A stretch of DNA of 64,000 nt from Watersipora subatra (taxonomy: Eukaryota; Bryozoa; Gymnolaemata; Cheilostomatida; Watersiporidae), in contig NC_088711.1 in assembly GCF_963576615.1 (NCBI RefSeq), positions 36,968,121 through 37,032,120 of the forward strand. Direction: 5' to 3'. Positions 3,116-63,349 of this stretch are shown here, piece by piece (position 1 is the stretch's first letter; every line of letters starts with the position of its first letter). Both the position numbers and the translations under genes were made by a program. Below the pieces are notes generated by a model that worked only from the letters and a program-made list of their open reading frames with translations, was not told the origin of the DNA and ran no database searches.

Positions 3116-3233
3116 GAAGTAAAACTTAATATTGTGGCCTTTCAACATACTGGTGTCTGAATCCTGTAAGTTCAACCAGATCTTATAGACTGGACTGATT
3201 CTTGATGACACGCTTGGGTCTGTGTGTTTACAG

Positions 3234-40580: not shown

Positions 40581-40730
40581 TCAGTCCTTGCACTTTTTTA
40601 ATCCAGGAAAGAGATAGAGTTTACGGAGTTTTGTAAAGGTGTAGATGCAAGTTGGTACATTACCTCCCTGAGTTTCACATGACCTCGCATTCTGATCTGC
40701 CATACTGACCTGTCTCACCCGTGACTGTAT
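40581..40730 (-). CDS. Roco-caspase: last exon, caspase p10 C-terminus
   Basis: Phase-0 exon after acceptor TTTAAG. It reads IQSRVRQVSMADQN, then PTCIYTFTKLRKLYLFP and a short KCKD tail before the stop. The KLYLFP ending corresponds to the conserved RKKLYFFP strand of animal caspases, so the protease domain is complete at its C-terminus. Confidence 0.85.
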   Translation of the reverse strand: MQSRVRQVSMADQNARSCETQGGNVPTCIYTFTKLRKLYLFPGLKKCKD

Positions 40731-43700
40731 CTTAAACAGGTACATAAATATAGAGAAGCGACTGTACTGCCAACTCAAAGTATGGAGCCATATAATTGGT
40801 TGAGCGCGGCCAGGTCTTACACCAAACAAAGCGCTAAGGTAAACCAAACAATAATATGTGTAAACCAAACAGTAATAATATAACCAATCTTTACTATAAT
40901 AGGAGCCGTCTCTGTGTCTGTCAGAAGCCCGCTATGTCAGCTGTGAGGGTCAGAAAACTAAGATTTGAACTAGAACATTCAGATTCAAAGCGCTCCACGA
41001 CTGCGCCAGTCGCCCACCTTTTTACATCTAAGAATAATTGTACACATATGTATTACATATGCCCATCTCCATGGCTCACAGGTTGGAGAGTGTACTAGTC
41101 ATTAATAATATTTAGTGAATGTGGGGAGGGGTATGATTCAGCTGAAAGGTGATCGGGGAGTAGGAAAATACAAATACTGAAAAACAAAGTTACAAAGTTG
41201 AACTCGAAAAAGGTGAAACAATTATCTTTAAATATTAATACAACTTAAATAAATTGTACACTTAGCCTGAGGCCACTTTAAACTAGATATTCATCTGACC
41301 AATAAAGCTAAACATAGACGAAAAATATCTGGCTGAGGTTACAGAATATAAACTCACTATGTCAAAGAGAGTACGAACATCTCTATGATGAGCATGTTTA
41401 TAGAATGTTGCAACCAGAACTCTGATAAACCATGAGCCATGAGTGTGAGACCTCGTGGACACATAGCTGAAATAGACAAGAGAAAGATGTATATTAGTAG
41501 AGCAATGAGCTAATGACATACATAATAACATACACAATAACATAACAATGGTAATAGGTATGCAGATGCACAGTCCTTCTCCAAACATATATGAAGGAGT
41601 GTATCGTCAGAGACAAAGAATATCAATGAATACCAGAGGGGCTGTACATAAATAAACACGTGTATATACTCACATTAACAAGCACATCTGAGACTAGACT
41701 TTGTACTTACATTCACTGCTGGCCTTCATGATGAAGAAATCATCAACATTCAGAGTAGTTGGAGGTGGAACTGAAGTAGTTGGTGACTGAAAAGCTGATG
41801 TACTGTTAACTGTGGTTGACTGAGGAGCTGATGTACTGCTAACTGTGGTTGACTGAGGAGCTGATGTACTGTTAACTGTGGTTGACTGAGGAACTGATGT
41901 AATGTTAATTGTGGTTGACTGAGGAGCTGATGTACGGCTAACTGTGGTTGACTGAAGAGCTGATGTACTGTTAGCTGTGGTTGACTGAGGAGCTGATGTA
42001 CTGCTAACTGTGGTTGACTGAGGAGCTGATGTACTGTTAACTGTGGTTGACTGAGAAGCTGATGTAATGTTAATTGTGGTTGACTGAGGAGCTGATGTAC
42101 GGCTAACTGTGGTTGACTGAAGAGCTGATGTACTGTTAACTGTGGTTGACTGAGGAGCTGATGTACTGCTAACTGTGGTTGACTGAGGAGCTGATGTACT
42201 GTTAACTGTGGTAGACTGAGGAACTGATGTACTATTAACTGTGGTTGACTGAGGAGCTGATGTACCGTTAACTATGGTTGACTGAGGAGCTGATGTACGG
42301 CTAACTGTGGTTGACTCAGTGGATGGGCTGCTTATAATGGTGGATATTGGTGAATATGAAGGAAGCTCTCTACTTTCACCAAAATCTCGTCTCTCTAGAT
42401 AACAGTGTTTGATTAGTTAAGTGAAATTTTTATACTAAGTGAATCTCTGTAAACGCATGTTAATACTAGCAAGCAGAAAGTGCTCACATTTTCCAGTTAA
42501 AAACTGAGTGGTTATTGCCCTAGTATAGATCATAGCTTTGTTCATGTTTTTTATGTCTTTCTATGTTTTGTGGTTATCGACAAAACTTCATTGCCCAGAG
42601 TAACGTTCCATTCTGTAGACGATCACATTGCACATTTTATTTATTGTTTAGACATTAACCAAATAGCCATGCAGCTGATATTCAGAGCAGATTTTCTGTT
42701 GCAGTTGTAAAACTTGATCATATGCAGCTGTTCTTAAAACATACATTTGTTTCTGTCATCCAATGACTCATGTTTTGGAATACTATGACTCATCAGAGGA
42801 AGGTGCTTATATTTATGGTCCCTAACATACCCGTTTCTCAATTTCTCTTTAAAAATGGTGTTATTGATGCCGTCAACCATATCCAACGTAATAAATATTT
42901 GAAATTAATATATTGCCAAACACCTCTATTTTAACGCTCTACTATTTTAACCTTTCCCCTAGAGAGGTATTTTATTCGGGGTGACAGCCAAATAGAGGGA
43001 GGCATTGTATTTTTCAAATAGCTCCTCAAAATCTTCTGAAGCCAAATTTAGCCCTTGTACAGATGGGCGATGCAAATGTTGCATATATTATGCACTCTCC
43101 TTCGAACGGAACGGCATTAACTCTTTTGGATGCATTAAATCAGCTTAACTTACCTCCAACTTGGTCGCAGAGCTTTAAATAAATAAGCATTGAGAGGCAG
43201 AGAACTATCTCTACCAGTTGATACCTATCAATTGCAATTAAATTGCGATGATCTTATAGCTTGCGTTGCAATTTGTTCAAACTTTCAGCTTTTTATTTTA
43301 TTCTAAACTTGAAGGCATATTTTTATTTTAGAACGATATTTAACAATGTTGCAGAAAAGCTCATGACACTCATTGATATGTTTACTACAGTTTGCAGTCA
43401 AAACTGGCTTTTCATGTGCAATAGAAGAGGTGTTATGAGGGTTCATCCATTGTAAGCTGAGTTTAGATTACCGAAATGGTGCTATCAAACAATATGCCAC
43501 AAATCTGCAAATTTATAAATTATATAACAATAATCTATCAAATGCTATAAATATATATTCAAAAAAAGTGACATAAACAAACCATACTTATAACACATAC
43601 AGAAACAAAAATTACCTTTTTTAAAACAAAAATATTTGCATCGTTTGCTTGACCAGTTGCATTCTGATTGTTGCTTTATAGTTTGGAACCATTTAATCTT

Positions 43701-46700
43701 CTGGCTTTTCAATATCTTCCACAGTGTCTGCTGACCTCATTTCTTTCTCTGCACTGCTGAACTAATCAATATTTGCGTCCAAACAATTTGTATAGAGCAA
43801 ATCTTTTACGCGTTGCTATTTGGAAAACTTTCCGTGAAAACAATGATAAACTTTTAATCGCATGTGTGCTAAGCACAAGCTTATAATCTGAAAATGGAAG
43901 TACAGACTAAATCTTAATTGTAAACCATTTGTCGCATACGTCGAAGTATTGAAGCCTTATTAAAAAGGAACTACTATTAGTCTGATAGAGTTATTAATTA
44001 TTATCATTAATCTCAGAGTTTTAAGGAAAAAACCATAAGCTTAAAGACTTGGAGTTGGAAAATGGACTTTGATGCAAACAAAAACAACCGAACAAATTAA
44101 TTTGCTTTTAAATTTAAAAAAAGCTTCAAAGTGGCGGTCAAATGAAAGCGGCATTCAAAAAGAGGTTTTACGATATATGCGATGTAGAGCTACCCGGGTG
44201 GAAAAAAGAGCAAATGGTGGGAAGTGATTTTATTGGGGTCATTATCACAACTTTGGCAATACAAGCAACGATTGGTTATTAAGCTATGGCTGGATGCCTA
44301 AAATGAGACAATGCTTCATTTTACATATTTAGATGTGAAATAAAGATAATGTAATCTAATAATCTATAATAATATGTATAACAATGAGATAAAAATGATA
44401 TTCATTCAGAACTCTTTTGCTACCAAATTGACTTGTTTACCAGGACATAATTACATATTCAGTAAAAACTAATATTTGAAAAGTTCGCATACGAATTGTC
44501 ATAAATTTTTAATATTTTCATATTAAATTAATCAGCATAAACTTTACATTAGCGGATGCAATAAAAAATGCCACAAATGCGTTGCAGAATGAATGCAGAC
44601 ACTTTTTTGGTCATTTTTACTACTACAATGAGCATGTGCGAGTCAGATGAGTTATCAATATTTTTACAGATGACATTATTATTATTGCTAAATATAAAAT
44701 AATCACTCTCAGTAGTGCTATTGTTCAATAAAAATCACTCAAAGTCCATAGGTCTAAAATTAGTAAAAGTTCGTAGCTGTAGCCTAATGCATCTGATACA
44801 GGCCTGCCAACCCAAGAGTGGGGCAATGCGTGAGATTTGGTTTTGGGGCAGTTGATGTGTCAATGATAGTATATATAAAATTGTTGAAATTGGGGCAAAA
44901 ATCTCACGCCTTTCTCACGCATTTTCATTTTTTCTTTGGGGTGATTGCATGAGTCTCACGCCCAAAGCTTTAGCAAAATGAAACTACGCTCAGGATGGGC
45001 TTTAAACATATTTCCTATCATCTCAACACATGCTGATGTTTCCTTCTGTTGAAGTACAGATACTATAAGTTAATTGATCAACTACTTACTAATAAGATAC
45101 TTGTATTACACGTGCTAAAACCGCACTAGGTGGCTCCTGGCCATATGCAAACGCTGTGCTTAGCCGCACTGCACGGCTTGTGGTACACAAAGAGGTAGGT
45201 TATCAAAGAGTTGATGAAACTGATATTTAGTCAAATAGTACTTATTCATCTGGTTTACTGAATGTATAGTCTGTGTACCCAAACTGTGTATCCTTTATCA
45301 GGTGACATACCCCCTGAGCATGCTTGCAAGATCACCAACTTAGGCTTGTCCTTCATAGCAGGGAAATTCCGTGGAGAGAGAAGGTCTTGGATGTGGATGA
45401 AGGGAATCACGTTGCTCTCAACATCCAGCAGGTGGTTACCACTCGTACCATGAGTCATGATTACTAGGACAAACATGCCCAGATTCTGGTGTTCCTCTCT
45501 CGCTGTTTCAATCTGTATCTCTCTGTAGATATCCTGAGAAAAAATAGTAACCCTGACTAGAACAGGCCAATATTTTTATGAATTCACATTCTTTTGGATG
45601 ACTGCCAGATAGCAGGAAATCATTGATGTGTTGCTAAAAACCTTATCTAACATCCAAGGAATGAAAACAACAAATAAACAAGCTCTAAAACTTAGACTAG
45701 GTTTCCTGCAAACATAAATTACAGTTAGGAGGCTTTGTATCAATGTCCCTCCATCAGATGATCTATTAACACTTTGACTACCAGACCAAGACATACAATA
45801 GCCACAGAAGTGTCTCACTGCTTCTTATGAAATTGTGTACTATGAGTGTAAATCAGCCAAATTCTACAATCTCTAAGCAGAAACAAGACTCTGAAAGGAC
45901 AAACGGAGTACCTGTGCTCGTAGGTCTGTTAATTCGGCCTGTGACTTGGCAATATCAAACTTGAGGTATTTGAACATCGTGCTGAGATTTATGTAGTCAA
46001 ATTGGGAACCAGCTCTTTTACCATAACCACAGCCAAAGTTCATATTGTTGATGATTAGAACTCTGCCCCTCACTGGTTCACTCATAGCATAGACCTTAAT
46101 AATACAATCATAGAACACAGAAAAGTTGTAACATAAGAGAACACAACTCTTGCAGTTTGTGTTTTGATAAAAAACCTGATCATTAACCTTACCCATTAGC
46201 TGAGTTCAAGAGTCGTAAGTCTAAAAAAGGATATGGAGAGAAATAATTGCAGTAAGAAGTTGTCTGCTTTTGACATTTCAATGCTTTATCAAAATCAAAG
46301 ATTAACCATTCTTCTCTAATTGAGACATCAACAGGTAACTTCAATAATATAACGGTAATGTTATAGACATGGTATGATACGGTATGGTATAATGGTTCTT
46401 AACATTCTTAAAACGCTATATAACAACCATATAAGTTTTATGATCTTTGTTATTTAACAAGTTAACTCATCATGTCTATGCTCTTCCTCTGATGGAAACT
46501 GTCAGCAGCATGTTAGTTACAAGTTAGATATTAAACTGATTAATTATATTACCTTGTTAGACTGATACAGTTGCTTAATCTTCAGCTTCCTGACTATGCA
46601 TAGTCGTAGCCTCATGACCTTGTCTGCTTTGGACTCATCACAATATCCTTGAACATCCACATCTGACAAGTCACTTTCAGCCTCCTCAGAGGTGCTCTCC

Positions 46701-49700
46701 AGATGCCCTGAATACAACAGAGTTAATACTCTATGTTTCTGTTGTTACTATAGAGAATCAATCTCTTTCCTCGTATTTACTCCCATCTTTATTTACTCTT
46801 ATTCAAATAATATATAAATCAGAGACTTAATGAGAACATACACAGGGAAGAAGCTTACCAACTGTTTGGGGAGGACAACTCTCTCTTATTTCAGATATAT
46901 GGTTCTCAAGGCTTTGTACTTCATCATCAGTTAGTTGGTCACCTGTAGTTATGATGTAATACAATTATTAATAAATAAAATGTGTCGACAAACCAAAGCA
47001 TCTCATAATCTACAAATATGTCTCCAGAAATATTTTATCTATTTCCTATTTGCAATTGAAAAACATCATAAGGATCGTCATCAATACTATCCATCAAAAA
47101 TATTTTACTATCTGAAGGAAAAATGGTAAATTATTGCATTTAGCCAAACCTTGACTGAGACTAAATTCAAAGAAGAGAGTGAGAAATGTGACTCACAAGG
47201 AAGTCTGAGAGGCTTGGGCACGGAAGGTCTCAGATCAGCTTTCAGCTTGTCACAATCTGGACATACAACCTTGGACAGATGTGAGCGTGTAGCAGGGAGT
47301 TTAGTACAAGTAATGCTGTAGTTACAGTCACTAGGATAAAACCACTCAGGGTCGATATAGAAATGAGGTGCAGGGTTTTTTCCAATGAGACATTGAGAAC
47401 AATAGAGAAGAACTTCAGCATGACTCCCTTTCCACACGGCGTTGAGCTGGTTAAGAATAGCTTTAGTCGTCTTTATTAAATGTTTCCAGGCAGCTGGTAG
47501 CTGTGCCACTGTAGTACCAACTTTCAATAAGACCATTCGGTTGGTTAAGTCATGATTCAAAATTGTGGTAAACTCCTCACTGTGTACCACAGCTCCATCG
47601 TTCCACACCTTTATGTTTGACAACACACTTGAGCAGAGTTTCAGGACTGCAACAGTCATAAGTTGATATACATAAGGAGGTGGAGATAGACCACCTAAGG
47701 CAATGTCCAGTCGGAGAGGTACATTGTCATCCAATGGATATGTCTTATCTACAAAAGTAGTCGTAAAGTATGGAAGGATGTACGATCTTCTTCTTCCTTT
47801 GTACCCGATTGGACCAATCAAGATGGCGAAGCTCTTTAAAAGTTGCATGGATATTTCAACAGGTAACGCACTGCTGTTCTTAAGGAGATCTACTAGCAAG
47901 ACTTCATCCATGATGCCGCTAGTAGTAAACTGTGTTACGAATGCTTGGTACTTCCGTTTACTGACCCATTCTTCTTGGTGTGTGAAAGGAACCAACTCTT
48001 CGACCCTCTTTTTCCATTGTTGCTCAGCTGTGTGGTGGAACAAGAGAGCTATCATCTCAGTAATGATAGGAATTTTGTGGAAGACATAACTGGACAGACC
48101 TTGGGCTCTCTCGAACCACAAGATCTGCCCCGTATTATGCATATAGCGCAGAATGGTTTTAGAATCAGTGTCTGAGAATTCGTTCTCTACCTTCAATAAA
48201 GGAATGTAAGTTTCTTCCTCTCGTTCAATGAATCTCTCTACACGCTCCCAAAGTAGCGGAATTTCCACGATTAACTTCTTACACCGTGTCTCTAAGTTTG
48301 CTCTCAAACCTTTAATGTTAGATACTTCGCCGAGGTCATTGCCAAACTCGTAAATATCTTGAGGGTTAAAGAGAGGCTCGTCAGTGTTGGTAAGATGGAT
48401 GATACAACTGGAATCTTTTTGAAAATCCCCACAGCACCTCTCGTAGTCTCTGAGTAACTCTCTTCTTGCAGCTTCTGAAATTGAGAGCAACTTTTCCTTA
48501 CAATCTTTCACCAACTCAGTATCCAACTTGTCAGTGTGTGTGAGGACCAATACAGGTGGATCTAATCTTGGACTGGCCAAGTAGAGATGAGACAGCCAGT
48601 CTATACAGAGTCTTCTTGTACTTTCTCTAGTCCCTCCAGATAGATATGAGTTAAACTCTTCCATGTTAACTACAAGGAGTGGAATGCATCGTTCCTGTAT
48701 GACTAGCTGGTAGGCCATCTGATAGATATCATGGCCACCATAGTCTATAAACTTGAGAGGGGAGTCGTTCAAGTTTTCCATTTGGAACACTTTGGTTGTT
48801 TCATCAAATGGTGAATTGTTCTCTCTGTAGGTAAGTTCCCTTTTACCGGACTGGAGGCTTCTAATGAGACTACTTTTCCCTGCACCAGTCATACCGACAA
48901 CTGCGACTGGTACTTTGAGCTGCTCTACTCCTTTTCCTTCCAACAGATCAGCAAAGTATTTATTTACTGCAGCGATACCTTGTATGCATACTTCGTACGG
49001 CGGAGATTGGAGAGAGTAACAACCATTACATTTTAGCACTGTGAGTTGCTGCAACTCCGAGATTTCACTACTTATTCTTAATAACTTCCAATTGCTGGAG
49101 AAATGTAACTCCTTCAGATTAATCATGCGGTAGACGACGGAGGGTAGTTCCACCAGCTTGCTGTGTGATAGATTCAAGTACTTCAGCTGGGTCTCACAGT
49201 CCAGTCTGCAACAGAAGATATCAGAGACATATCGTTGTTAGAGTCAAGGTAGACACCATCGATTATAATGCTGTAAACTGGTTATGTTAGTTAAACTAAT
49301 AATATTATAACTTCCGAATAAATTTAACTTAAGATAAAATATGGTTGGTAGTTTTACACACGACTTAGGCAATCCTCGGCGTGCACGTAATGTAACTGCA
49401 AAAGATATTTAATATGAAACAAATAGTTAATGTAAAAAGGTATTTAATATGAAACCATAATATATTAAATATCAAATGATTGACTTAAGAGAACACTGGA
49501 GAGCAGGTTTTATAATAAGATATATTTAACTTCAAACCATAAAAAACAAACGTGTTATTTTCCAGCAATTCTTGCTGTTATACTGAGAGTATCAAACAAT
49601 GATCAACGGATATCTGCTATTACGTACCGCTAATTGATATCCTAAGTTTAAACAATGTTAAAAATGTTTACTTACAAGTTTTGATATAAAACTTATTTTA

Positions 49701-52700
49701 TTAGCTGGAGTTCACAGCATAATTAAAAGTATTCAGTGCATGGCAACCTTACTAAGTCTTCAACTGCATCTCAAGAAACAGACTATCAGACTATGAATTA
49801 TGAAGGGTTATGAAATGAAATGATAATAAAGAAAATACTTTTATAATAATCCTCTCAACTCTAATTTTAATAATAAACTATGTAAATAACAGCAGCAGCT
49901 ATCATTCAGTTTGTTCATATATAAACTACATGTATAAGGTGAATCTGTCCCTTTCAGAAATGGAATCGCAGCATTCTTATGTCTTTTTGTTATGGTTACT
50001 TGTGATGGAGGAGTTTTTGAGAAAAAAATATAAATACTGAACAGTGTCAGGGACCCATACAGCTCAGCATCTGTTGCTGGACATGACTTTGAAGGAGCAG
50101 CTCATTAAACTGAACAGGGTCAGGGACCCATACAGCTCAGCATCTGTTGCTAGACATGACTTTGAAGGAGCAGCTCATTAAACTGAACAGAGTCAGGGAC
50201 CCATACAGCTCAGCATATGTTGCTGGACATGAATTTGAAGGAGCAGCTCATTAAACTGAACAGAGTCAAGGACCCATACAGCTCAGCATATGTTGCTGGA
50301 CATGAATTTGAAGGAGCAGCTCATTAAACTGAACAGTGTCAAGGACTCATACAGCTCAGCATATGTTGCTGGACATGAATTTGAAGGAGCAGCTCATTAA
50401 ACTGAACAGTGTCAAGGACCCATACAGCTCAGCATCTGTTGTTGGACATGACTTTGAAGAAGAAGCTCATTAAACTGAAACAACATAGTAATTTAAAGCT
50501 GAATTTGCACAAAATTTTTAGCAAATTTTATTGGAAAGTATCAGTATTATCCTATCATTTGCGAGTGTTGTTGATGTTTGAAGTGCTCTGACTGCCAGTA
50601 AATTGCAAGATCAAAATTGCCAAAACTCGATTAAACGCTTAGTTTTAATCCTTAGTGGGTGGTGAATTCGTGACATATAAAGCGTCGTATGGAAAAGAAT
50701 CCATAAGCAATGAATATACGGTCTCTTCTTTAGCCAATCATCAGCATAAATTTTTCATTTAGGTCGTAATAATTGTTATGGCTAACAAGCTAGTTGTCTG
50801 TAATATCAAAGATTTTCGTTGTTAGAGAATTCACTATCCACAGTTAGACTTGGATAAGTTCCGTGTTAGCGTAAGCGAAGATCGTCTTTCAGGATGAGGT
50901 GGTGTGTGTTTCAGTAAATTATCAGGGCAAAACTTGAGGAGCGAAATTAGCAACACTATGAAACCGTCGTAGATTATGGGAAAATTCCCTGATTTACTGA
51001 ATGACGATTTGCTTCAATTCAAATCTCCTTCAATCATTGAACCAGCCCGATCTATTGAATAACAACAGAATTACAACCCGGCCTCTAGTTCCAGCGAAAA
51101 TGCCTCAGACTGTTTTAATCATCAGGTGGTGAAAGATTGGGGTAGACAGCCTACGGTTAGAGCTGACATGCGTTATGCTGCTGAGAAAGATATAAGAATG
51201 CAGGTATATCTATTATTGTGTTTGAGTCTCTCCTACATGTATCTACCAAACTAAAGTAAAAGGAATAACTTTACTACTCATGAATACTTATACTAACAAG
51301 AAATATTGCACAATTGATTGTAGTAAGTCGACTCGTAATTTACTACTAGACATCTCTAGTTTTAACAAACTTTATATTTCTCATTTATCCTAGCTATAAT
51401 AACTCACCATGAACAGGTAAGAGGGATGTAGTAACAAGAAGTCTAGAGATTCGAGGTCAATGATAATAATAATTGTTTTTAGTGTCAAATGATGTGTACG
51501 ATTTTATGGAGAAACTATTAATCAAATATTTTGCAGCCTCTACTTGCGGTCTAAAGACTTGATTTCAACTTTAACTAGCTGCAAGCTGTAGCTATAAACC
51601 ATGTAACTAGTTTAGATTTTCTCTGGTTGTTTTAGCTGGTGAATTAGATTAATTATTAGAATTCATGCCAACCCATTTGTAGAAAGTTAATCAAAATGCA
51701 TTGATCAATGCTCACTTTGGAATTCCAAAATCAAAGCCTCAAATCATTGGTTTGACCTATTTATGCTTTTGTTAAACATGTGTTCATTTTAAAATATTTT
51801 ATTCTCAATATATCTAACTCCCGAATTGAATAGATACATGTTAGAATATAAACTAATAATCAGTAGATTTAGTTTCCTAACTCTAAGAATAGATTTAGTT
51901 AACTCTATTGCTAGCCGCAATAGAGTTAACCCTTAATAGAGAGTGATTATGTTCATCCGCGAATATGCATGAAAAAGGCATTTTGCACGAAACTTAACTC
52001 CGTAAATATATTTATCCTGTAAGGTATTTTGATCAACTCAAAAAACCATTCGTTTTGTACTTTTCAACTCATAAAAAATGATCAGTAAAATATGTTCTGC
52101 AAATTGATACTAATAATGGCTAGATAACCCTGCCTACACAACTTTTTTAAGGATGCAGTCGGTCTCACCTCATATTCGAACATATTCTTTTCGAAGATGC
52201 GGCTGGTTAGTTTTTATCTAGTAACTAACCAAATGCCTGGCATTGCACGAGTAATAAAATAATCACCCAACGAATTTGAGTAACTTACCTGGTAATTTAA
52301 TAAAGGTAAGCTTGCCTTTACTAAAACAGTGTTTGCAGACAGCTTATAATCGTGTAACTGTCACCCATCCTAGTTAATGACCCAAAGCACTTTTGCTGGT
52401 CTGCTGAGCAGCAGGTTCCGAGATGAAATATCGGAAGTTAGTAGTTATATTGTAACTGACAGAATCTTAGTCTGATACTCATAGAGTATGAGTATCTACA
52501 TATACACAGCATTTAGAGGAAACTAATGGAACAAACTTTAATTACCTTATTTAAGACATTTGAGACACCTATAGCAATACATATGTAGCTGAATTAAAAA
52601 ATTTATTCGAAAAATCATGAGCAAATACAAATTAAATATACGGTATGCCAATAGAGCTGCACAGTACTCAACTTTGATAGTAATAGCCATTGTAAATACG

Positions 52701-55700
52701 AGCCCGAGACAGCCAGCCTCGCGGCTATGTACACCATTTTGGGCAAGTCTGGGCACATAATTTTCTTCTGAGCATTTAACTGCGATAAAGTTTTGTCTAT
52801 TTTAATCTTGAAACATCTCAGCAGTCGGATCACCTCAAACATCAAAAACAATCGCAAATAATAAAATTATACCTATACTTTCTAATAAAGTTAACAAAAA
52901 TTTTGTGCAAGTGTTTAAAGCTAAAATTTGCTGATTTTCTTTTTGATAGTTTTTGGTTATTGGTTGCAAGAGTTTCCCCATTCCGGCCAACAAAGCCATT
53001 TAGACATTGCTACTGTTTACATCCACATATCTGTTTGAGTTGATCTTCCCAAGCTTTACAGTAATAAAAACTAAAAACAGAGAGATTGAGAACTGTTGAG
53101 CAAGGGCTTGGGGTCTGTCTTTCTATCATTCCTGCAAGGATATCCATGTATTTATTCAGGTCCATGTTTTCCACTAAGGGAGTGTAAAAAGACATTAAAA
53201 ACTTAACTATATGTATTACAGAGTTAGAGTGTCATTCCGTGTCATTTTGCTTCGCAGTGTGACTCGAGATTTTGTAAATGTGAAAAATGTGCTGCGGCTC
53301 AAAAAAGGCTGATAGTTACTGGTATAGATATACGATGAGTCTACATGCTGATGTTTGTCAGCAATATTTATAGTTAACCAATGAAATATCCATACATTAA
53401 ACATATCATCCAAATGAAAATCCTTAAAAGCTCCAAAGATAGACAAGGTTTGAGATTCTATATTTTACATGCTAGCAGAATTCTCTTCTAACAATTCACA
53501 TACATTATTCATATCATGTGTGTAAAATTCCCTAAGAGCTCCGAACAAACAAATATTTAAACTCTTTTAAACAATTTAATCAAATGAGTCTTTTTAAAAA
53601 TTTGAGACATATTTTGTAACCCAACTTTGGTAATGAAAAAATTATCACATACAGGATGATAACAACTATAGACAACATAATAAAAGGGTCATGATTCATA
53701 CACATGTCCTACACTACCAATGTATAATCTGTATATATCTGTATAATAGCTTATCTACCAGACTAATAGAGCTATCCAATATTTGTACAGTACCTCTGTG
53801 GGAGGTCTCTCAGCTGACACCTCTCGAGTGAAAGACTCTCCAGTGTTCCTAATTCCCCAATCACTGGAGGTAGTCCTGTACTGAAGTTGTTGTCATTAAG
53901 GTATAACTCCTTCAGTTCCTTGAGAGACTTGAGACTATAGAAATATATTCATAATACTTTAGTCTGTAATCCCATGACCAAACACGAGCGAAGGGAGTGT
54001 TTGGGAGCTTTATGATAAATGCATATGTGCACACAACCCACGAAACTTATTCATCAACACGGTCGCAAACCCTTGTACCGAAATCTCATCAACAAATTTA
54101 ACCATTTTTCAATGGAATCGTTTAAGTATAATAATGATACAAAACACATTTACAAAACAAAACCCATACACAACACATACAAAACCTATTTAAATATGTT
54201 ACCAAGTTTTTGAAATTTGTAGACAATATCCTAAATGTTACCCATCTGATCGGATAATACATAACTAGACAAATTAATTTGGCCTAAAATTGCTATTAAA
54301 TCCTGATAAGCCTATTTTATTCAAAATTAAGACTGCCCAACGAAACATCGATAAAACCGTGCGACCGAGAGTAGAACCATTAAGTCGTGCGCATTTCACG
54401 AGAAAAACGTCCACATTTCACCAGTCTATGGCATTGTCCAATTGCCGAAGGTTTCTAATATCTTTCCGTTTTTAATATCTTGCAAAAATATTTAATTATA
54501 AGAATAGTTATTCGATCTTATAAAATTATTATAAGATTTAATTATAAGAATAATCATTCGAATTTATTTGTCCAAAGGTTTCTGTAATAAACATAGACCG
54601 TTTGAGGCGTAGATCGATTTACAGGTACGAAATTGTGGTACACAGCCTATCAGCCTATGTTTTATTTGTCCAATTACCGAAGGTTTCATTAAATTATTTA
54701 GAACATTAGCCAAAATTCTTTACATCCTAGTTACAAGCTAGGGCCGAACTACAACGCCCCTTTAAGTTCAGTTTGCAGAAAACTTCCAGAAGCGTGAATT
54801 CTGATGCTCGCTTTCTGTTACAGATCGCTATCAAAACCATTCTACATTCAACACAACCAACTTTCAAACTGTGTATATTACACAGCAGCTTGCCATTTTA
54901 CTTTTAATATTGCATTTCAGAGATATAATAAACATATTTCATTATTGATGTTGTTAAATTACATACAGTACAGTAGGTTAAGCCTACAGCTTTAATTATT
55001 ATTTATTTTATTATTGTAAAACATAGGTTTGAGACAGTAGTAGATTAGGTCTGATTTTTATACAACATTTTGTTTTGCATAATTGACTTTTTGAATTTAG
55101 TTTCAAAACAACTTGACAACTACCATGGACATACAACTTCTCAGAATACCACGTCGTCGCCGATGCAGTGGCCGTCCACGTGTCTCTCAATTATTACAGC
55201 TCAACAGGAGGAGAAATAGAAGGTCCTCACAGCAACCATCAACATCAAATGCTAATGTTCAACAACATGCTACTCAAATTAATAACAACAACTCATCTGA
55301 TTCAGAGAATTCTTTAGTAGATGTTGTAGGCGATGTAAATGACATGGACTTGGCAGCCCCTTTGTTTCCAGATGATGATGCTCCCTCAAATTTATTTTAT
55401 ATCATCTCGAACAACTCTCATTTACACTATACTCTGTCAATTCCTGCTGACAACTACTTTTTCAACAACCATCAGTACCCTTTCTTTTTTCCATTATAAC
55501 TTTGGTCGTGGGCTGTACGACAGGGGAATTTCTAGTTAATTTACATTTTAATTAATCACATTTCTTTGCATTATTTTGCATTTGTTGCTTTTTGAAAGCG
55601 TGTGGTAAGTTAGGACAATTAGCATCATGTTCTTTCTGTTACAATATCTTGTTTTAAGTGTTTTGTTTTTTAGAGTATGGAAACCAATCAATATATATTT

Positions 55701-58700
55701 AATTATTCTATATATAAATAAATTGCACTAGCATGCAAGTAAATTAACATATGAGCTCAGTCCCAGAATGCATTAAGCTCGTAAGTCGAAGTACGACTGT
55801 AATTGCATATTCAATGATAGAAATAAAAATGTGTAGCAGGAGGGCTTTTGATTTTACCCAGAAATAGAACAGATGCAGCTGAAAAGCCTGAAGAGAAGAC
55901 ATAACTCGCAAATCATGTACCATAATTATAGTAATGTAGCCGTACCACCATATACCCTGTTAGCTGTCAAGTCAAGTACTTTATCTACATGTATAGCACC
56001 AAGCCGACATGTAATTAATCAACCACCAGAGTTGTCTACCCTTTGAAGGAAAACCGTCCAATCACTAGAAGTAGTAAGTTTTGCTGTAGAGACAGTATTT
56101 AAACATGAACTAGTGTCTAAAGCTGTATCACTAGCAGTTAATCAGGTTAATTTTACTCTGAAACTAGATCAACCAATCATTCAGAGTAATTTTAGATTAC
56201 AGCTGATGAGAAACTTTCCAAATAATCAGTTGAATCTCAAATTGCTTGAGTTTAATTATTAAAATATTACTGTGCAAGGTAGAAGAAAGATATTCAGATC
56301 TCTGCTATTACTAACAACTACTGATATTCTCATTTAAAATAATGTTAAAATGTTTACTTGCAAGTTTTGATATAAAACATATTTTATTAGCCGGAGTTCA
56401 CAGTATAGTTAGAAGTATTCGATGTATAGCAACCTAACTAAGTCCTGAACTGCATGTCTAAAAACCCACTATCAGATAGTCTACATGTAGCTTTAGTCAC
56501 AAGTTTAGTATTTTAACTCTTTGTTTTACAAATCATAATACAAGACACCATCACAGAAGGGAAGGAATCACTTTACTCATATTTTATAAACATCTTCATA
56601 ATATACCTATCATGGTATAAATAAGATAATTACACACACAATACATCAGGGAGTCTATTAATAAGTTCAACTTATAAACTTGGCTGTTTTAAATAAAGTC
56701 AGCAAGAGAGAAAAATCCAGTTATCTGCAGCAGATGACCAAATGACTACGATTATAATCTCAAAATCTCCTGGATGTGAAAATAATTAACTGAAGACTAA
56801 TTACTTGTTAAATTTTTTATAAATATAAAATAGCGCATTAAAACTGAAACAATAGCATATTCATATCGTGTGTGTTAAATTCCCTATATAAGAGCTCCAA
56901 ATCAACCAACAAAAGTTGCCTAGAACTTTAAAATATTTACAACAGTTTTAAACAATTTAACCAAGTGAATCTTTTTAAAATTTTAGAGATATTTTGCAAC
57001 CCAACTTTGGTAATGAAAAGAATAATCATGTACAGGATGATAACAACCATAGACAACATCATAAAAGGACCATGACTCATACACAGGTCCTACACATCCA
57101 GTGTATAATCTGTATATATTTGTATAACAGCTCATCCACCTGACTAATAGAGGTATCCAATATTTGTACAGTACCTCTGTGGGAGGTCTCTCAGCTGGCA
57201 GCTCATGAGTGAGAGACTCTCCAGTGTTCCTAATGCAGCAATCACTGGAGGTAGTCCAGCCCTGAAGTTGTTGTACTCAAGGGTTAACTCCTTCAGTCTT
57301 TTGAGAGACTTGAGACTATAAAAACATAATAATAATACATTAGTGTGTAATTTAATATATTTTACCACGACTTACTACGACAGCTGGCCCTGTGACCCCA
57401 ACACGTCAATAAACATATAGTCCCAGAGCATGCCTAAGGAAGACAGATATAATGAGTTTATGGCTGCGTGTAGACATAAATAATTGCATATCCAATGTTA
57501 GATATAAAAGTGTGTAGTAGGAAGGTTTTTGATTTTACTCAAAAATATAACAACAGATACAGTTGAAAAACCTGAAGAGAAGACAGCAGCAAGGAGAGGG
57601 AAGCCGTCACACAATCTTTGCTTGTAATCAGTGAATCTCTAACAAAAGTTGAGGTAGAATAATTCATAAATCATATACCTATATAATAATGTGCCTGTAC
57701 CAACATATACCTGTACCACCATTTATCTGTACCATCATATACCCGTACCATCAGGCACCTGTACAATCAAGCACCTGCCCGCCATATAAAACTACAGTAT
57801 ATCTTCTGGAATTGTGAATAATAGGTAACTAATTTCAAATAGAAGTAAACTACACAGGCACTGTAAACATGAGCTTTTAAATACAGTTTGTATCTAAATA
57901 TCATAAATTTATAAATTGTTACCATGAAAATTTTGCAAGCAAAATCAAAATTCTATTGTGTTGAGCATGAAAAATGTAAATGAAAAATGGAAACTTATAA
58001 ATAAAATTCTGAAACAAGATTTTACAAGTTCCAATCTGGGCCCTACAACCATAGATGTAGAGAACACCAAAATTACAGATCCTTTAAAGATTTCTCAATG
58101 TATTAACAACCATTTTATAAATATTAGAGTAGATCTTGCAGCAAAACTTCTTAAATCTGATGTACCTTATCAATCCTTTTTACAACTACCAATATCTAAC
58201 ATTAAATTTAAATTTGAGCAGGTCTTAAAGGATGATGTAATAAAAGTGATAAATCAGTTGAACAAGTAAATACGTACATATATGGAAGACTTAAACATGT
58301 TGGTTGATAACCAGTATGTATTTTATAAAAAGCGCAACACCACAGGAGCTAATAGTGAAATGCTTGAAAAACTATATGTTAATTTCGATAGTGGCACAAT
58401 TACAAATGGGTGTTTTAGGTTTTTTAAAAGATTTTGATACGGTTGACCACACCATTCTAATTAACAAACTTAAATTCTACAACTTCCTAATGATGCTTGC
58501 ACTTTAATCACAAGCTATTTAATCAATCACAAATTATGAAGAATAATAACACATCTTCATCCCTAAAACATGTAATAATTGGTGGTCCACAAGGTTCTAT
58601 CATGGGCCCACTGTTATTCATTATATTTATTAACTAAGAGAATACCCGGCATTGCCCGGGTAATAAAAAAGCCTTTGAACAGCAAATTTATTTTTATTTA

Positions 58701-61700: not shown

Positions 61701-63349
61701 AAGAAAGTACAGAGGATAGAAACTAGCAACTCTTCCCTACTACAGAGTTGGTCTCAATGCTTCTTACAGAGCTTACTAGTGTTTGTAATGAAGTCACTGT
61801 AATTCACACAGTTTGTTGAACAATTGTTGGCATCTACAGACCACATATACCATAGTTAGGGAGGTCCATCAGAATATATAACACTATTTTATACAGAAGT
61901 TGTTTTAAAAGGAGAATATCTCGAACCATAAACATCTGCTTCTGATGAATTCAAGTATTATAAAGTACGAGCCACTGGCGGACAGAAAGACATATAAATT
62001 TTGCTCACAGCTGCCTCTGGTGAGACTTTACTATCATGGCAACTGCAGTGGAAGCAGAACTGGACTGAGTACCAACTCTATAGGATATTGGCTAATTTAC
62101 AACAACAAATTAAACATGATAATGCTAATGTTTGTGTGAAGTGATCATCTACAGTACAGAACACCTACACTAGGCAGTGGAGCACCTATCACTAGACATC
62201 TAATCACAGAATACTAATGCTACATGCATGCTAGTGTAAACACACATTTACACTGAAGTAGATTAATGGAGTGACTCAGAAGAGAAGATAACTCCATATA
62301 TGATAACCATACCCTAGGTAGAGGGACCACCAAGTTGGCTAGAACAAAAAAAGAAGAACAGACATACATATTGCTGAGCAGAAGAGATCTGAGAACCAGT
62401 GGAGATAGAATAATGATAGGTTATAACACAAACATTAAATATAACGGCTGCATGCAGGAAGAAAAAGGGCCTAATAAAGAACCTTATCCTACATAAACAG
62501 TGTTAGTTTTCTCTCCGTAGAATAGTCACTAGGAGTAGAAAATGGTGAAAATATTCTATGGTTTTAAAAAGAATATTTGTAAAATATTATTTAACATTCT
62601 CCCAATATTGTGGAATTGTTGTGCGTGATCATTCGCTGAACTTTCCAGCAACGTACTTCCCACACCGTTGCTGGAGCCTTAAAACGGTGTCTACAAATAA
62701 TCTTGTGACAACGTTACAATCAAACGTTTCTGAGATTTTTCGGAACACCTCTGGAGTGTGTTGGGCACATAAAAATGGTAGCTGGGCAGCTATGCTGTCA
62801 TCAGATAAATGGAAGTTGTCCAGTAATCAGCCAATCAGAAAGCAGTAAAAATTAAACACTGATAATAGATCATGTGACTTTTAGCTAGTCAGTCACATAG
62901 GATGATGGCATTTATATAATTATTACTCATGGCCTGTGACATCACAAGATTGGATAATTTAGTTAATGATTCCGCACTTGGCTATGATATTCACTAATTC
63001 ACTAGACTAATACAACTAGTAGAAGTATCAAATACTTGTATAATTAGTAAATGATTAGGGAGACTCTAGTCAATATGCTGTCAATATGTCAGTCTTACTA
63101 ATTTAATTAATCACAAATATAATCAGTTAAACTTCTTCAACCTACAGTCAAGCTAAACAGTAGATACAGACTCAGTATGTACACGGTACACTGTATATTA
63201 CACACTACCTCTGTGGGAGGTCTCTCAGCTGACAGCTGCTGAGTATGAGACTCTTCAGCGTTCCTAAATTGGTAATCACTGGAGGTAGTCCTGTACTGAA
63301 GTCACTGACGGCAATATTCAAAGCCTCCAGAGCAGTGAGAGAGCTGAGA
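40581..63349 (-). CDS. LRR-Roc-COR-caspase protein (Roco-caspase fusion), 5' end beyond the window
   Basis: Eleven exons in transcript order: 63209-63349, 57175-57315, 53794-53934, 47197-49205, 46859-46942, 46553-46707, 45912-46094, 45311-45533, 41707-42394, 41358-41466 and 40581-40730 (stop 40581-40583). The phases agree across all ten junctions, if the second GT at 41705-41706 is used for one donor. They encode at least 1340 residues: LRRs, Roc GTPase, COR, a four-cysteine knuckle, an acidic linker, caspase p20, a Thr/Ser/Pro repeat and caspase p10. The catalytic His (MTHG) and Cys (QACSG) are both kept. By family knowledge, LRR-Roco modules sense and switch through GTP, and caspases are cysteine proteases that cleave after Asp. 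A sensor that directly releases its own protease is my inference. No signal peptide can be judged because the start is missing. Confidence 0.88.
40898..41018 (-). repeat. tRNA-derived SINE
   Basis: On the minus strand ACTGGCGCAGTCGTGGA (A box) and TAGTTCAAATC (B box) are about 30 nt apart, followed by a body with GACAGACACAGAGACGG and a TATTATAG end. It is located in the last intron of the caspase gene, sense to it. Confidence 0.65.
41358..41466 (-). CDS. Roco-caspase: caspase p10 core exon
   Basis: Reads YVSTRSHTHGSWFIRVLVAT and continues to the donor after TLFDI. It matches the YVSWRxxxxGSWF motif of caspase small subunits, with the substrate-binding Arg kept and the Trp before it replaced by Thr. 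The exon needs two bases from the previous exon (phase 2 entry), which bears on the tandem donor at 41705-41710. Confidence 0.87.
41707..42394 (-). CDS. Roco-caspase: Thr/Ser/Pro repeat linker exon between p20 and p10
   Basis: Begins ERRDFGESRELPSYSP directly after the catalytic QACSGG, continues through at least 15 copies of an 11-residue repeat (TSAPQSTTVNS) and ends in NVDDFFIMKASSE, which fits the start of p10 (compare ADFLxxxST in caspases). The repeat is about 170-180 residues, rich in potential O-glycosylation or phosphorylation sites, and nearly free of charge and of Asp. It replaces the short activation loop of ordinary caspases. Confidence 0.85.
41788..42330. repeat. 33-bp coding minisatellite, 15 full units
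   Basis: Exactly 15 units of 33 bp run from 41821 to 42315 without any length change, flanked by partial units. Variant units (CTGCTAAC, CTGTTAAC, AATGTTAAT, CGGCTAAC) recur in the same order about every five units, a higher-order period of about 165 bp. Confidence 0.95.
42395..45310. other. Intron of the Roco-caspase gene
   Basis: About 2.9 kb without exon signals that fit the gene's phases. Near 44815-44970 the motif TGCGTGAGATTT and its inverse AAATCTCACGC recur, so a small foldback repeat may be present. Confidence 0.5.
45311..45533 (-). CDS. Roco-caspase: p20 exon with catalytic His and Cys
   Basis: Reads DIYREIQIETAREEHQNLG, then MFVLVIMTHGTSG (catalytic His in HG) and KPKLVILQACSGG (catalytic Cys in QACxG). 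Spacing between the two is about 50 residues, as in animal caspases. Both catalytic residues being present argues for an active enzyme, not a pseudo-caspase. Confidence 0.9.
45912..46094 (-). CDS. Roco-caspase: p20 N-terminal exon
   Basis: Symmetric phase-0 exon of 61 codons. VYAMSEPVRGRVLIINNMNF matches the YxMxxxPRGxxLIINNxxF opening of caspases. The following KRAGSQFDYINLSTMFKYLKF corresponds to the RxGxxxDxxxLxxxFxxLGF helix, with the substrate-pocket Arg kept. Confidence 0.88.
46553..46942 (-). CDS. Roco-caspase: two linker exons between COR region and caspase
   Basis: 46859-46942 encodes (C)DQLTDDEVQSLENHISEIRE and on to PPQTV. 46553-46707 encodes GHLESTSEEAESDLSDVDV followed by a basic stretch MRLRLCIVRKLKIKQLYQSNK. 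The acidic then basic segment stands where caspases have a prodomain. No CARD or DED fold is recognisable. Confidence 0.8.
47197..49205 (-). CDS. Roco-caspase: large exon with last LRRs, Roc GTPase, COR and CxxC knuckle
   Basis: Entry LDCETQLKYLNLSHSKL continues the LRRs. Counting from the base at 49177 as residue 1: LRRs to about 60, Roc about 88-290 with P-loop GMTGAGKSS (95-103), G3 DYGG (145-148) and G4 THTD (213-216), then COR about 305-500 with the LRYMHNTGQILWFE signature. The C-terminal part has CSQC and CPDC pairs that could bind zinc. The length and order resemble MFHAS1-type Roco proteins rather than kinase-bearing LRRKs: there is no kinase. All GTP-binding motifs look intact. Confidence 0.93.
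50036..50473. repeat. 73-bp tandem repeat, six units
   Basis: Six contiguous 73-bp units starting at 50036, 50109, 50182, 50255, 50328 and 50401, a few substitutions each (core: gacccatacagctcagcat). Located in the intron. Confidence 0.95.
51898..51930. repeat. Small inverted repeat (GTTAACTCTATTGC)
   Basis: 14-base arms GTTAACTCTATTGC and GCAATAGAGTTAAC around a 5-base loop. Confidence 0.85.
52225..52450 (-). mobile_element. Non-autonomous Helitron, copy 3 (degraded)
   Basis: Begins on the plus strand with CTAACCAAATGCCTGGCATTGCACGAG, the inverse of a hairpin plus TTAG/T end. It shares 'aatttgagtaa' and 'cagcttataa' with copy 1. The right end is not clear. Confidence 0.5.
53794..53934 (-). 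CDS. Roco-caspase: LRR exon C
   Basis: 141 nt, entering and leaving in phase 2, two leucine-rich repeats: KELKELYLNDNNF then LGTLESLSLERCQLRDLPQR. It has the same length and phase as exons A and B. Confidence 0.9.
55113..55499 (+). CDS. Orphan 128-codon open frame, unknown
   Basis: Starts ATG with a strongly basic Arg-rich segment (IPRRRRCSGRPRVSQLLQ) followed by Asn/Ser-rich then acidic sequence. I recognise no family. It lies antisense in an intron of the Roco-caspase gene, beside the motif CGAAGGTTTC repeated near 54445 and 54675. It may belong to a transposon insertion and may not be translated. Confidence 0.25.
   Translation: MTTTMDIQLLRIPRRRRCSGRPRVSQLLQLNRRRNRRSSQQPSTSNANVQQHATQINNNNSSDSENSLVDVVGDVNDMDLAAPLFPDDDAPSNLFYIISNNSHLHYTLSIPADNYFFNNHQYPFFFPL
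56340..57600. repeat. Duplicated LRR-exon unit with its introns
   Basis: 57420-57590, exon B, 56860-57170 and 56343-56480 match in the same order 55750-55930, exon C with 53490-53793, and 49653-49800. So this whole unit of about 1.3 kb was tandemly duplicated. The other copy was later stretched by insertions. Confidence 0.8.
57175..57315 (-). CDS. Roco-caspase: LRR exon B
   Basis: 141 nt, phase 2 to 2: KRLKELTLEYNNFRAGLPP then LGTLESLSLMSCQLRDLPQR. Nearly identical in its second repeat to exon C. Confidence 0.9.
57958..60178 (+). pseudogene. Jockey/CR1-type LINE reverse transcriptase relic, split by a Helitron
   Basis: Pieces of one reverse transcriptase: 57958-58269 (WKLINKILKQDF, KISQCINNHFINI), 58420-58490 (FDTVDHTILINKLKFYNF), 58588-58633 (GGPQGSIMGPLLFIIFIN) and, beyond the Helitron, 59870-60178 (LFADDTTVF with the catalytic DD, then LNSPKT and a GITID segment). 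The frame changes several times, so it was already decaying or has decayed since. It is antisense to the host gene in an intron. The endonuclease was not found. Confidence 0.85.
58634..59869 (-). mobile_element. Non-autonomous Helitron, copy 4, 1236 bp
   Basis: Minus-strand 3' end: stem CCCGGGCAATGCCGGG, then TATTCTC and TTAG before host T. Minus-strand 5' end: host A, then TCTATACATC. Removing 58634-59869 joins ...ATTAA to TTATCTA and restores an open reading frame through the LINE reverse transcriptase with no duplicated target bases, exactly the A/T insertion rule of Helitrons. It encodes no Rep/helicase. A tRNA-like segment lies near 59700-59780. Confidence 0.85.
60270..61357 (+). pseudogene. 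hAT-like transposase relic
   Basis: The open frame 60348-60758 contains YKTKESVLNDYSELMAKLVK and on to a LRPQSTLMYRQVMNFL and HGDLLTHNNMRY stretch, resembling the mid-domain of ZBED5/Charlie-type hAT proteins (HGxLLYHxxVRWLS). 61118-61357 (EKVEHLNMVQQVCKNTEKF) may be a downstream part. A 45-bp segment at about 60287-60330 is repeated at 60559-60603. No termini found. Confidence 0.45.
61400..63200. other. Intron, no feature seen
   Basis: The frame 62558-62848 (96 codons, plus) shows no motif I recognise. The rest is stop-rich. Confidence 0.4.
63209..63349 (-). CDS. Roco-caspase: LRR exon A
   Basis: 141 nt, phase 2 to 2: SLTALEALNIAVSDFSTGLPP then LGTLKSLILSSCQLRDLPQR. It enters in phase 2, so more upstream LRR exons are expected beyond 64 kb. 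The flank near 63455-63560 resembles the duplicated X block next to exon B. Confidence 0.88.

What the first reader, a model, noticed from the sequence alone, without database searches (positions are those of the whole stretch)
40581..63349. A single gene joins LRR, Roc-COR GTPase and a complete caspase
Eleven minus-strand exons with agreeing phases read LRR - Roc - COR - CxxC knuckle - linker - p20 - repeat - p10 - stop. All GTPase motifs and both caspase catalytic residues are kept. Known Roco proteins carry kinase, death or ankyrin partners, and known caspases carry CARD or DED prodomains. I know of none with this order. It would be an NLR-like sensor that contains its own executioner or inflammatory protease, without an adaptor.
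Basis: partly seen in the sequence, partly recalled or inferred. Interest (0 to 1): 0.93.

Follow-up and report, generated by a model that had tools for sequence, protein, structure and literature searches.

The report
Bryozoan sensor gene with built-in caspase
A sea-mat (bryozoan) gene joins a leucine-rich sensor, a GTPase switch and a cell-death protease in one protein, and its genome shows the same GTPase-then-protease layout at well over a hundred places, which looks like an immune receptor family not recorded in the papers searched.

Summary
The window lies in the bryozoan Watersipora subatra. The 11 minus-strand exons are real. NCBI's own model of the locus also joins Roc-COR to caspase p20. 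Predicted structure matches both LRRK1/LRRK2/CtRoco and caspases.

Genome searches found at least 129 Roc-COR exons. Of these, 124 are followed, on the same strand and within 15 kb, by their own caspase p20 exon; none has one upstream or antisense within 20 kb. In the C8 array these exons show purifying selection. CARD, DED and NACHT gave 5, 3 and 2 matches.

Corrections. The p10 junction of this copy is one base shorter than in 16 of 16 paralog loci readable there, and NCBI's model stops before p10, so this copy may be p10-defective. The last exon starts at 40730, not 40709. The 5' end lies outside the window. LRR-caspase without an adaptor is known from amphioxus, and Roco-TIR from anemones and molluscs.

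Best reading: a new, hugely expanded Roco variant, probably an immune or death receptor carrying its own protease, activated by GTP-controlled dimerisation. Activity and transcription are untested.

The parts
63209..63349 (-). LRR exon 1 (141 bp, phase 2 both ends); first LRR cassette inside the window, not the first exon of the gene
   Evidence: splice sites and phase; Pfam LRR_1 0.0051, below cut-off; tblastn to P0002 65%
57175..57315 (-). LRR exon 2 (141 bp, phase 2)
   Evidence: Pfam LRR_4 1.1e-4, below cut-off; duplicated with intron flanks, 87% to exon 3 region
53794..53934 (-). LRR exon 3 (141 bp, phase 2)
   Evidence: tblastn to P0002 66%
47197..49205 (-). Large exon: last LRRs, Roc GTPase, COR-A/COR-B, CxxC motifs
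46859..46942 (-). Linker exon L1
   Evidence: same exon in NCBI model P0001 and in 19 of 20 paralog loci fetched
46553..46707 (-). Linker exon L2 with acidic ESDLSDV..GYCDE motif (candidate self-cleavage site)
45912..46094 (-). Caspase p20 first exon (S1-pocket Arg in GKRAGSQ)
   Evidence: Pfam C14 5.2e-5
45311..45533 (-). Caspase p20 second exon (catalytic His MTHG, catalytic Cys QACSG)
   Evidence: Pfam C14 1.3e-11
41707..42394 (-). Inter-subunit exon: GERRDFG.., 33-bp S/T-rich repeats, p10 start LNVDDFFIMKASSE; consensus donor would end it at 41711
   Evidence: (period 33, 16.2 copies)
41358..41466 (-). Caspase p10 exon (YVSTRSHTHGSWF); one base shorter at its start than in 16 of 16 paralog loci with a genuine p10 match
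   Evidence: Pfam 8.4e-4, below cut-off
40581..40730 (-). Last exon, p10 C-terminus and stop (acceptor corrected from 40709 to 40730)
   Evidence: alignment; tblastn to P0002 E 1e-21

Best explanation
The locus is one dispersed copy of a bryozoan gene family that encodes, in one chain, an LRR sensor, a Roc-COR GTPase dimerisation switch, an acidic linker and a C14A caspase. Shown by computation: the fused architecture in this locus and in NCBI paralog models; at least 124 genomic places with a Roc-COR exon followed by its own caspase p20 exon (the upstream LRR cassettes and p10 were not checked at each place); conserved splice sites; catalytic residues; purifying selection in the C8 array. Inferred: the LRRs sense a microbial, self or damage cue; nucleotide-controlled Roc-COR dimerisation or oligomerisation brings caspase domains together (induced proximity, without CARD/DED adaptors); the caspase matures by cleavage in the p20-p10 linker and may free itself at the conserved SD[LVI]SD site; the outcome is cell death or inflammatory processing. 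Some members carry an N-terminal MGxxxS myristoylation motif, so they may act at membranes. This particular copy probably makes Roc-COR plus p20 and reaches p10 only through a weaker splice donor, so it may be inactive or a regulator.
Against: No cDNA was seen and no activity tested. This copy's p10 junction is out of frame with the consensus donor, and NCBI's model lacks p10. Lys replaces the last S1 Arg in 2 of 11 p10-bearing proteins compared (P0002, P0036) and in 14 of 15 C8 loci with a p10 match, so Asp specificity may differ there. The S2-pocket Trp of known caspases (recalled) is not kept. Seven of 19 Watersipora models lack C14: P0003 and P0011-P0013 stop just before the caspase exons, P0005 diverges earlier, P0018 ends with the Roc-COR exon, P0031 is short (542 aa); these may be truncated models or real short isoforms. 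In the window copy itself dN/dS against the others is higher for several exons (L1 0.76, L2 0.57, p20a 0.52, last 0.46, rep3 1.10), though 0.19 for p20b and 0.15 for p10. Roc and COR stay below Pfam cut-offs in the window protein. Immune function is inferred from architecture only.
Confidence: 0.65

Rival explanations
1. Two neighbouring genes (an LRR-Roc-COR gene and a caspase gene) that the exon chain joins by mistake.
For: No transcript was seen. The Roc exon's frame meets a stop in the following intron (47108), and some NCBI models stop before the caspase. No AATAAA or ATTAAA was found in the 581 bases after the predicted stop.
Against: One-to-one same-strand order in 124 of 129 genomic copies with 0 upstream and 0 antisense; linker exons and splice sites kept in fetched loci; NCBI models span the junction; no AATAAA or ATTAAA in the Roc-L1 and L2-p20a introns, one AATAAA in L1-L2.
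Confidence: 0.03
2. This copy is a decaying or p10-less member: it makes Roc-COR plus p20 only, and acts, if at all, as a decoy or inhibitor of its paralogs, like a pseudo-caspase.
For: p10 exon one base short compared with 16 of 16 paralog loci with a genuine p10 match; NCBI P0001 ends ..ECKYKV before p10; a lone copy away from the C8 array; in the last exon it is 1-3 residues further from each of seven paralogs than P0002 is.
Against: Both p10 exons remain open. In the first p10 exon WIN is about as close to the same seven paralogs as P0002 is (28/36 and 28/36 vs P0004), and dN/dS of that exon is 0.15. A weaker in-frame donor exists 4 nt downstream.
Confidence: 0.45
3. The family is a real one-chain protease receptor, but for a non-immune job, such as colony self/non-self recognition or the cyclic degeneration of bryozoan polypides (recalled), rather than pathogen sensing.
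For: Large expansion in a colonial animal; allo-incompatibility in bryozoans is mentioned in PMC8195603 (passage).
Against: No expression or polymorphism data either way; tandem arrays and LRR cassette duplication also fit pathogen receptors.
Confidence: 0.25
4. The Roc-COR GTPase restrains a caspase that is activated by an outside protease, so the fusion is for targeting or inhibition rather than induced proximity.
For: In DAPK1, GTP binding to Roc lowers kinase activity (PMC6320773, passage).
Against: CARD, DED and NACHT matches are few in the genome, which leaves few known upstream activators.
Confidence: 0.2

Closest known systems
Amphioxus LRRs-caspase and TNFR-caspase proteins (PMC2575513, passages)
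   Same: Sensor repeats joined directly to a caspase with QACXG, proposed shortcut from recognition to death without an adaptor
   Different: No Roc-COR GTPase is mentioned in the passages seen; family size there not compared here; whether a Roc-COR was overlooked was not tested
LRR-Roc-COR-TIR proteins of anemones and molluscs (PMC5094078, PMC9334734, passages)
   Same: LRR-Roc-COR scaffold with a C-terminal immune effector or signalling domain
   Different: The effector is TIR, not a protease
MFHAS1/MASL1 and LRRK1/2 (Roco family)
   Same: LRR, Roc, COR order and fold; NCBI names several paralogs MFHAS1 homologs
   Different: MFHAS1 has no C-terminal effector and LRRKs have a kinase; here a caspase follows
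Animal NLRs (NACHT-LRR with CARD/PYD/death)
   Same: Proposed logic: sensor, nucleotide switch, death output
   Different: GTPase of the Roco kind instead of NACHT; the protease is in the same chain; only 2 weak NACHT matches in this genome
Brown algal LRR-ROC-COR candidate immune receptors (PMC11378527, passages)
   Same: Expanded ROCO family with phase-2 LRR cassette exons suited to shuffling
   Different: 72-bp exons and no effector domain there; 141-bp exons and a caspase here

Membership tests
Roco GTPases | Roc GTPase motifs (P-loop GxxxxGK[ST], DxxG, THxD as in LRRK2, recalled) | tested here: met
   GMTGAGKSS, DYGG, THTD in the window; similar in the paralogs aligned, except P0038 (degenerate P-loop and G4) and P0016 (model lacks G1 and G3)
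Roco GTPases | Roc score above Pfam gathering cut-off | tested here: not met
   Window 21.2 vs 27 bits. Metagenome relatives P0034 33.2 and P0032 28.3 pass. A sequence-score criterion; the fold test below is met
Roco GTPases | Roc followed by a COR domain, always in tandem | tested here: met
Roco GTPases | GTP binding and hydrolysis | not testable with these tools
   none
Caspases (C14A) | Catalytic His and Cys (QACxG) | tested here: met
   MTHG and QACSG; Pfam C14; best PDB sequence matches CED-3 and caspase-3
Caspases (C14A) | Asp-binding S1 residues Arg, Gln, Arg (positions recalled) | tested here: met
   GKRAGSQ, QACSG, VSTRS in the window; Lys for the last Arg in P0002 and P0036 and in 14 of 15 C8 loci with p10
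Caspases (C14A) | p10 subunit read in frame with p20 | tested here: inconclusive
   In frame in 10 NCBI models (P0002, 4, 6, 7, 8, 9, 16, 36, 37, 38). In this copy only with a weaker donor
Caspases (C14A) | Proteolytic activity after Asp | not testable with these tools
   none
NLR (NACHT-LRR) receptors | NACHT NTPase | tested here: not met
   No NACHT hit listed for the window proteins or the 13 paralog/relative proteins scanned
MFHAS1 orthologs | Orthology to vertebrate MFHAS1 | tested here: inconclusive
   Only NCBI's names; no vertebrate MFHAS1 among the hits. PMC4104024 says only deuterostomes have MFHAS1 (passage)
Amphioxus LRRs-caspase proteins | LRRs joined to a caspase without Roc-COR | not tested
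   Sequences not at hand; one search returned Watersipora only, but candidates must share exact 5-residue words

The most novel reading that the evidence does not exclude
In this bryozoan the NLR system is essentially replaced: a genome with very few detectable NACHT, CARD or DED exons carries 124 or more one-chain LRR-Roc-COR-caspase genes, most in tandem arrays and with exchangeable LRR cassettes. It would be an R-gene-like repertoire in which every receptor holds its own executioner protease, switched by GTP and freed at a built-in DxxD site, probably from the membrane.
Probability: 0.4. Interest if true: 0.93.

Novelty: new variant of a known kind. Interest (0 to 1): 0.82.

Why it matters
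A single polypeptide that senses, switches and executes would be a very short route from recognition to a caspase through a GTPase switch, and would let the induced-proximity idea be tested without adaptors. More than a hundred such loci beside very few NACHT, CARD and DED matches would make a Roco-caspase family, not NLRs, the main candidate for the intracellular receptor repertoire of an animal group whose immunity is little studied. It also gives a natural protease read-out for Roc-COR activation, which is still debated for LRRK2.

Tried and rejected
Separate genes: rejected. Chance exons: rejected by paralogs and selection. First pairing with the general Pfam caspase list gave only 41 of 75 Roc exons (132 p20-type rows kept by hand, p10-only and first-exon-only rows dropped, and one search did not list all its matches). 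Five of its unpaired loci were read and all had caspase exons (L025, L027, L028; L031, L032), so the shortfall was the scoring cap; the family-specific query gave 75 of 75. Two overlapping rows were merged by hand, so 76 rows became 75 exons. The five Roc-COR exons left unpaired were not read.

VIA search of the P0004 model listed LRR proteins, because the LRR domain fills the list. Relatives outside Watersipora: searches returned, besides Watersipora, one cyanobacterial Roco, one Roco-like JGI ORF and unnamed metagenome ORFs (P0017, P0019-P0030, P0032-P0035) that cover only the Roc-COR exon; whether caspase exons follow there is unknown. Word-based candidate choice makes the absence of other animals weak evidence. 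LRR cassettes: dN/dS 0.87-0.95 between the three exons, too few sites to claim diversifying selection. Upstream N-terminal exon (WYRHSGQ-like) not found; 2,500 bases next to the window read N. Selection counts used 18 of the 20 fetched loci and only gap-free full-length exon matches (13-19 copies per exon including the window, 4 for rep5). Of 17 rows with both rep3 and p10 matches, L021 was a spurious 40% match and was left out; L009, L012 and L027 gave no p10 match in the fetched 10 kb. The 20 loci were picked from the top, 19 of them on C8, so they are not a random sample of the 75.
Full report
What is there. The window is C4:36968121-37032120 of a 783.7-Mb assembly. NCBI's protein model for the locus names the organism, the bryozoan Watersipora subatra, and the assembly size agrees with the published genome (783.70 Mb, PMC12902671, passages). 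Against Pfam the p20b exon scores 1.3e-11 for Peptidase_C14, p20a 5.2e-5 and p10 8.4e-4; the large exon scores 3.1e-6 for MMR_HSR1 and sub-threshold for Roc and COR-A.

Corrections to the model. Alignment to paralogs moves the last acceptor from 40709 to 40730. At the repeat/p10 junction the consensus donor T^gtaagt is out of frame with the p10 exon. The frame is kept only by the donor TGTAA^gtacaa, which yields SSECNY where the ten p10-bearing NCBI models are one residue shorter (mostly SSE-SY). In 16 of 16 fetched paralog loci with a genuine p10 match, two bases stand between the acceptor AG and the first p10 codon; in the window there is one. NCBI's model P0001 starts at MTGAGKSS, so it lacks the LRRs, and ends ..ECKYKV, so it lacks p10. 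Both p10 exons of the window are nonetheless open. The first is about as similar to seven other paralogs as that of P0002 is; the last is 1-3 residues less similar to each of the seven. I treat p10 function in this copy as open.

One gene, not two. Three lines agree. First, NCBI's P0001 joins the Roc-COR exon, both linker exons, both p20 exons and the repeat exon at the same junctions. Second, of 19 Watersipora models returned, 12 carry C14 with Roc-COR sequence (P0001, 2, 4, 6, 7, 8, 9, 10, 16, 36, 37, 38) and 7 do not (P0003, 5, 11, 12, 13, 18, 31); P0002, 4, 6, 7, 8, 9, 36, 37 and 38 also have LRRs and p10. Among 11 sequences (the window model standing for P0001, without P0010), Roc-COR and caspase distances correlate (Mantel r 0.911, p 0.0001). 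Third, the genome. A search with the window's Roc-COR exon gave 76 rows, 73 without stops, merged to 75 exons. A search with the window's p20b exon gave 150 rows, 149 without stops. All 75 Roc-COR exons have a same-strand p20b exon downstream within 15 kb, each its own; none has one upstream or antisense within 20 kb; random placement gives a mean of 1.07 and a maximum of 5 in 1000 trials. Adding a second Roc-COR query (81 rows, 79 without stops) gives 129 exons on eight contigs, of which 124 are paired, with a median distance of 2.2 kb; 26 of the 150 p20b exons have no partner in the lists. The five unpaired Roc-COR exons are four on C9 and one on C3 with five stops; they were not read. Counts are lower bounds, because only the best candidates are scored. 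LRR cassettes and p10 were not checked at all these places; the large exon itself carries the last LRRs, and a P0002 query matched it from residue 170-179 on in 34 of 35 large-exon rows (P0002 residues 178-238 are LRR).

Family anatomy. Arrays: 32 and 8 copies on C9, 19 on C8, 16 and 12 on C3, others smaller; the window copy stands alone on C4 (grouping within 1 Mb). In the 20 loci fetched (19 on C8, one on C7), ROC, L2, p20a and p20b were found in 20 of 20, L1 in 19 and p10 in 16; one ROC (L016) and one p20a (L026) match contains a stop. In 18 C8 loci GT and AG signals are kept at the exon ends listed, the spurious L021 p10 match apart, and all 20 p20b exons printed end in QACSG. Pooled dN/dS among C8 copies plus the window is 0.26 (ROC), 0.54 (L1), 0.22 (L2), 0.26 (p20a), 0.18 (p20b), 0.24 (p10), 0.34 (last exon), about 0.6 for the repeat-exon ends. 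For the window against the others it is 0.30, 0.76, 0.57, 0.52, 0.19, 0.15 and 0.46 in the same order, so this copy may be less constrained in places. Copies are not independent and no significance is claimed. The three LRR exons are each 141 bp, in phase 2, duplicated with flanking intron. A presumed 5' exon (MGSSQSRS..) lies about 3.9 kb outside the window. It and the starts of P0002, P0005 and P0006 fit a myristoylation pattern that I recalled; 8 of 11 model starts tested do not.

Mechanism. Residues for caspase catalysis and the Asp pocket are present in the window (GKRAGSQ, MTHG, QACSG, VSTRS; which positions matter is recalled). P0002 and P0036 have Lys at the last position, as do 14 of 15 C8 loci with p10, so specificity may vary. 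A linker motif SD[LVI]SD precedes the caspase; a strict DxxD is present in 13 of 17 proteins examined, also in models that stop before the caspase. It could be a self-release site or a phosphorylation or docking motif. The 33-bp S/T repeat between p20 and p10 is seen in the window and P0002; P0004 and P0006-P0009 have shorter non-repeat linkers. I infer activation by Roc-COR dimerisation (induced proximity). Nothing here measures it.

Context. Matches in the genome: CARD 5 (10 candidates scored), DED 3 (16), NACHT 2 (31), one of the latter with six stops and the other a partial match of 47 profile positions, against at least 150 p20b exons. The six-frame exon search can miss split domains. Scarcity of the usual adaptors fits a one-chain design.

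Literature. Closest are amphioxus LRRs-caspase and TNFR-caspase (PMC2575513), LRR-Roc-COR-TIR (PMC5094078, PMC9334734), Trichoplax Roco with CARD, death and TIR (PMC4104024) and brown algal LRR-ROC-COR (PMC11378527); of all these I saw passages only. Passages of PMC8195603, PMC7159879, PMC6320773 and PMC2246300 were also seen. Searches listed, by title and abstract start, no paper on LRR-Roc-COR-caspase or on bryozoan Roco proteins; several matched far more papers than were listed, and most subscription papers are not held. The Watersipora genome note has no occurrence of 'caspase' in its main text, and a Flustra genome paper none of 'caspase' or 'immun'.

Verdict. Observation confirmed with corrections; interpretation right on architecture, doubtful on completeness of this copy, too strong on what was known. 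The larger finding is the family.

Noticed in passing
L018 (C8:6170100-6180090), p10 exon: Its p10 exon is 94% identical (protein) to the window's, while the other 14 C8 copies with a genuine p10 match are 67-72%; p10 exons seem to be exchanged between copies (gene conversion or mosaic)..
   Followed up: partly
P0037 (1869 aa, another Watersipora contig): LRR-Roc-COR-caspase followed by six fn3 matches and a hydrophobic C-terminus: a possible membrane or extended variant, or two genes merged by the annotation.
   Followed up: no
C3:67351135-67351953 (L001): A full-length caspase match in one open frame of 364 aa without Roc-COR in the fetched 3.8 kb: a caspase of another kind in the same genome.
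   Followed up: no
C6 (own genome): 10 of the 26 p20b exons without a Roc-COR partner in my lists are on C6; more divergent Roc-COR exons or other partners may sit there.
   Followed up: no
Metagenome ORFs P0017, P0019-P0030, P0032-P0035: Unnamed metagenome contigs hold single ORFs matching the Roc-COR exon at about 33-48% identity, so the Roc-COR part seems to exist in other organisms.
   Followed up: partly
window 17898-18815 (-): hAT transposase C-terminal dimerisation region (Pfam PF05699, 4.7e-5), with a further 352-aa open frame beside it (18800-19858, no Pfam match).
   Followed up: no
window 50036-50479: 73-bp tandem repeat, 6.1 copies, in the intron before the Roc exon; 23-bp arrays at 10245-10613 and 11444-11887.
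   Followed up: no
window 3199-4167 (+): 322-aa open frame without Pfam match.
   Followed up: no
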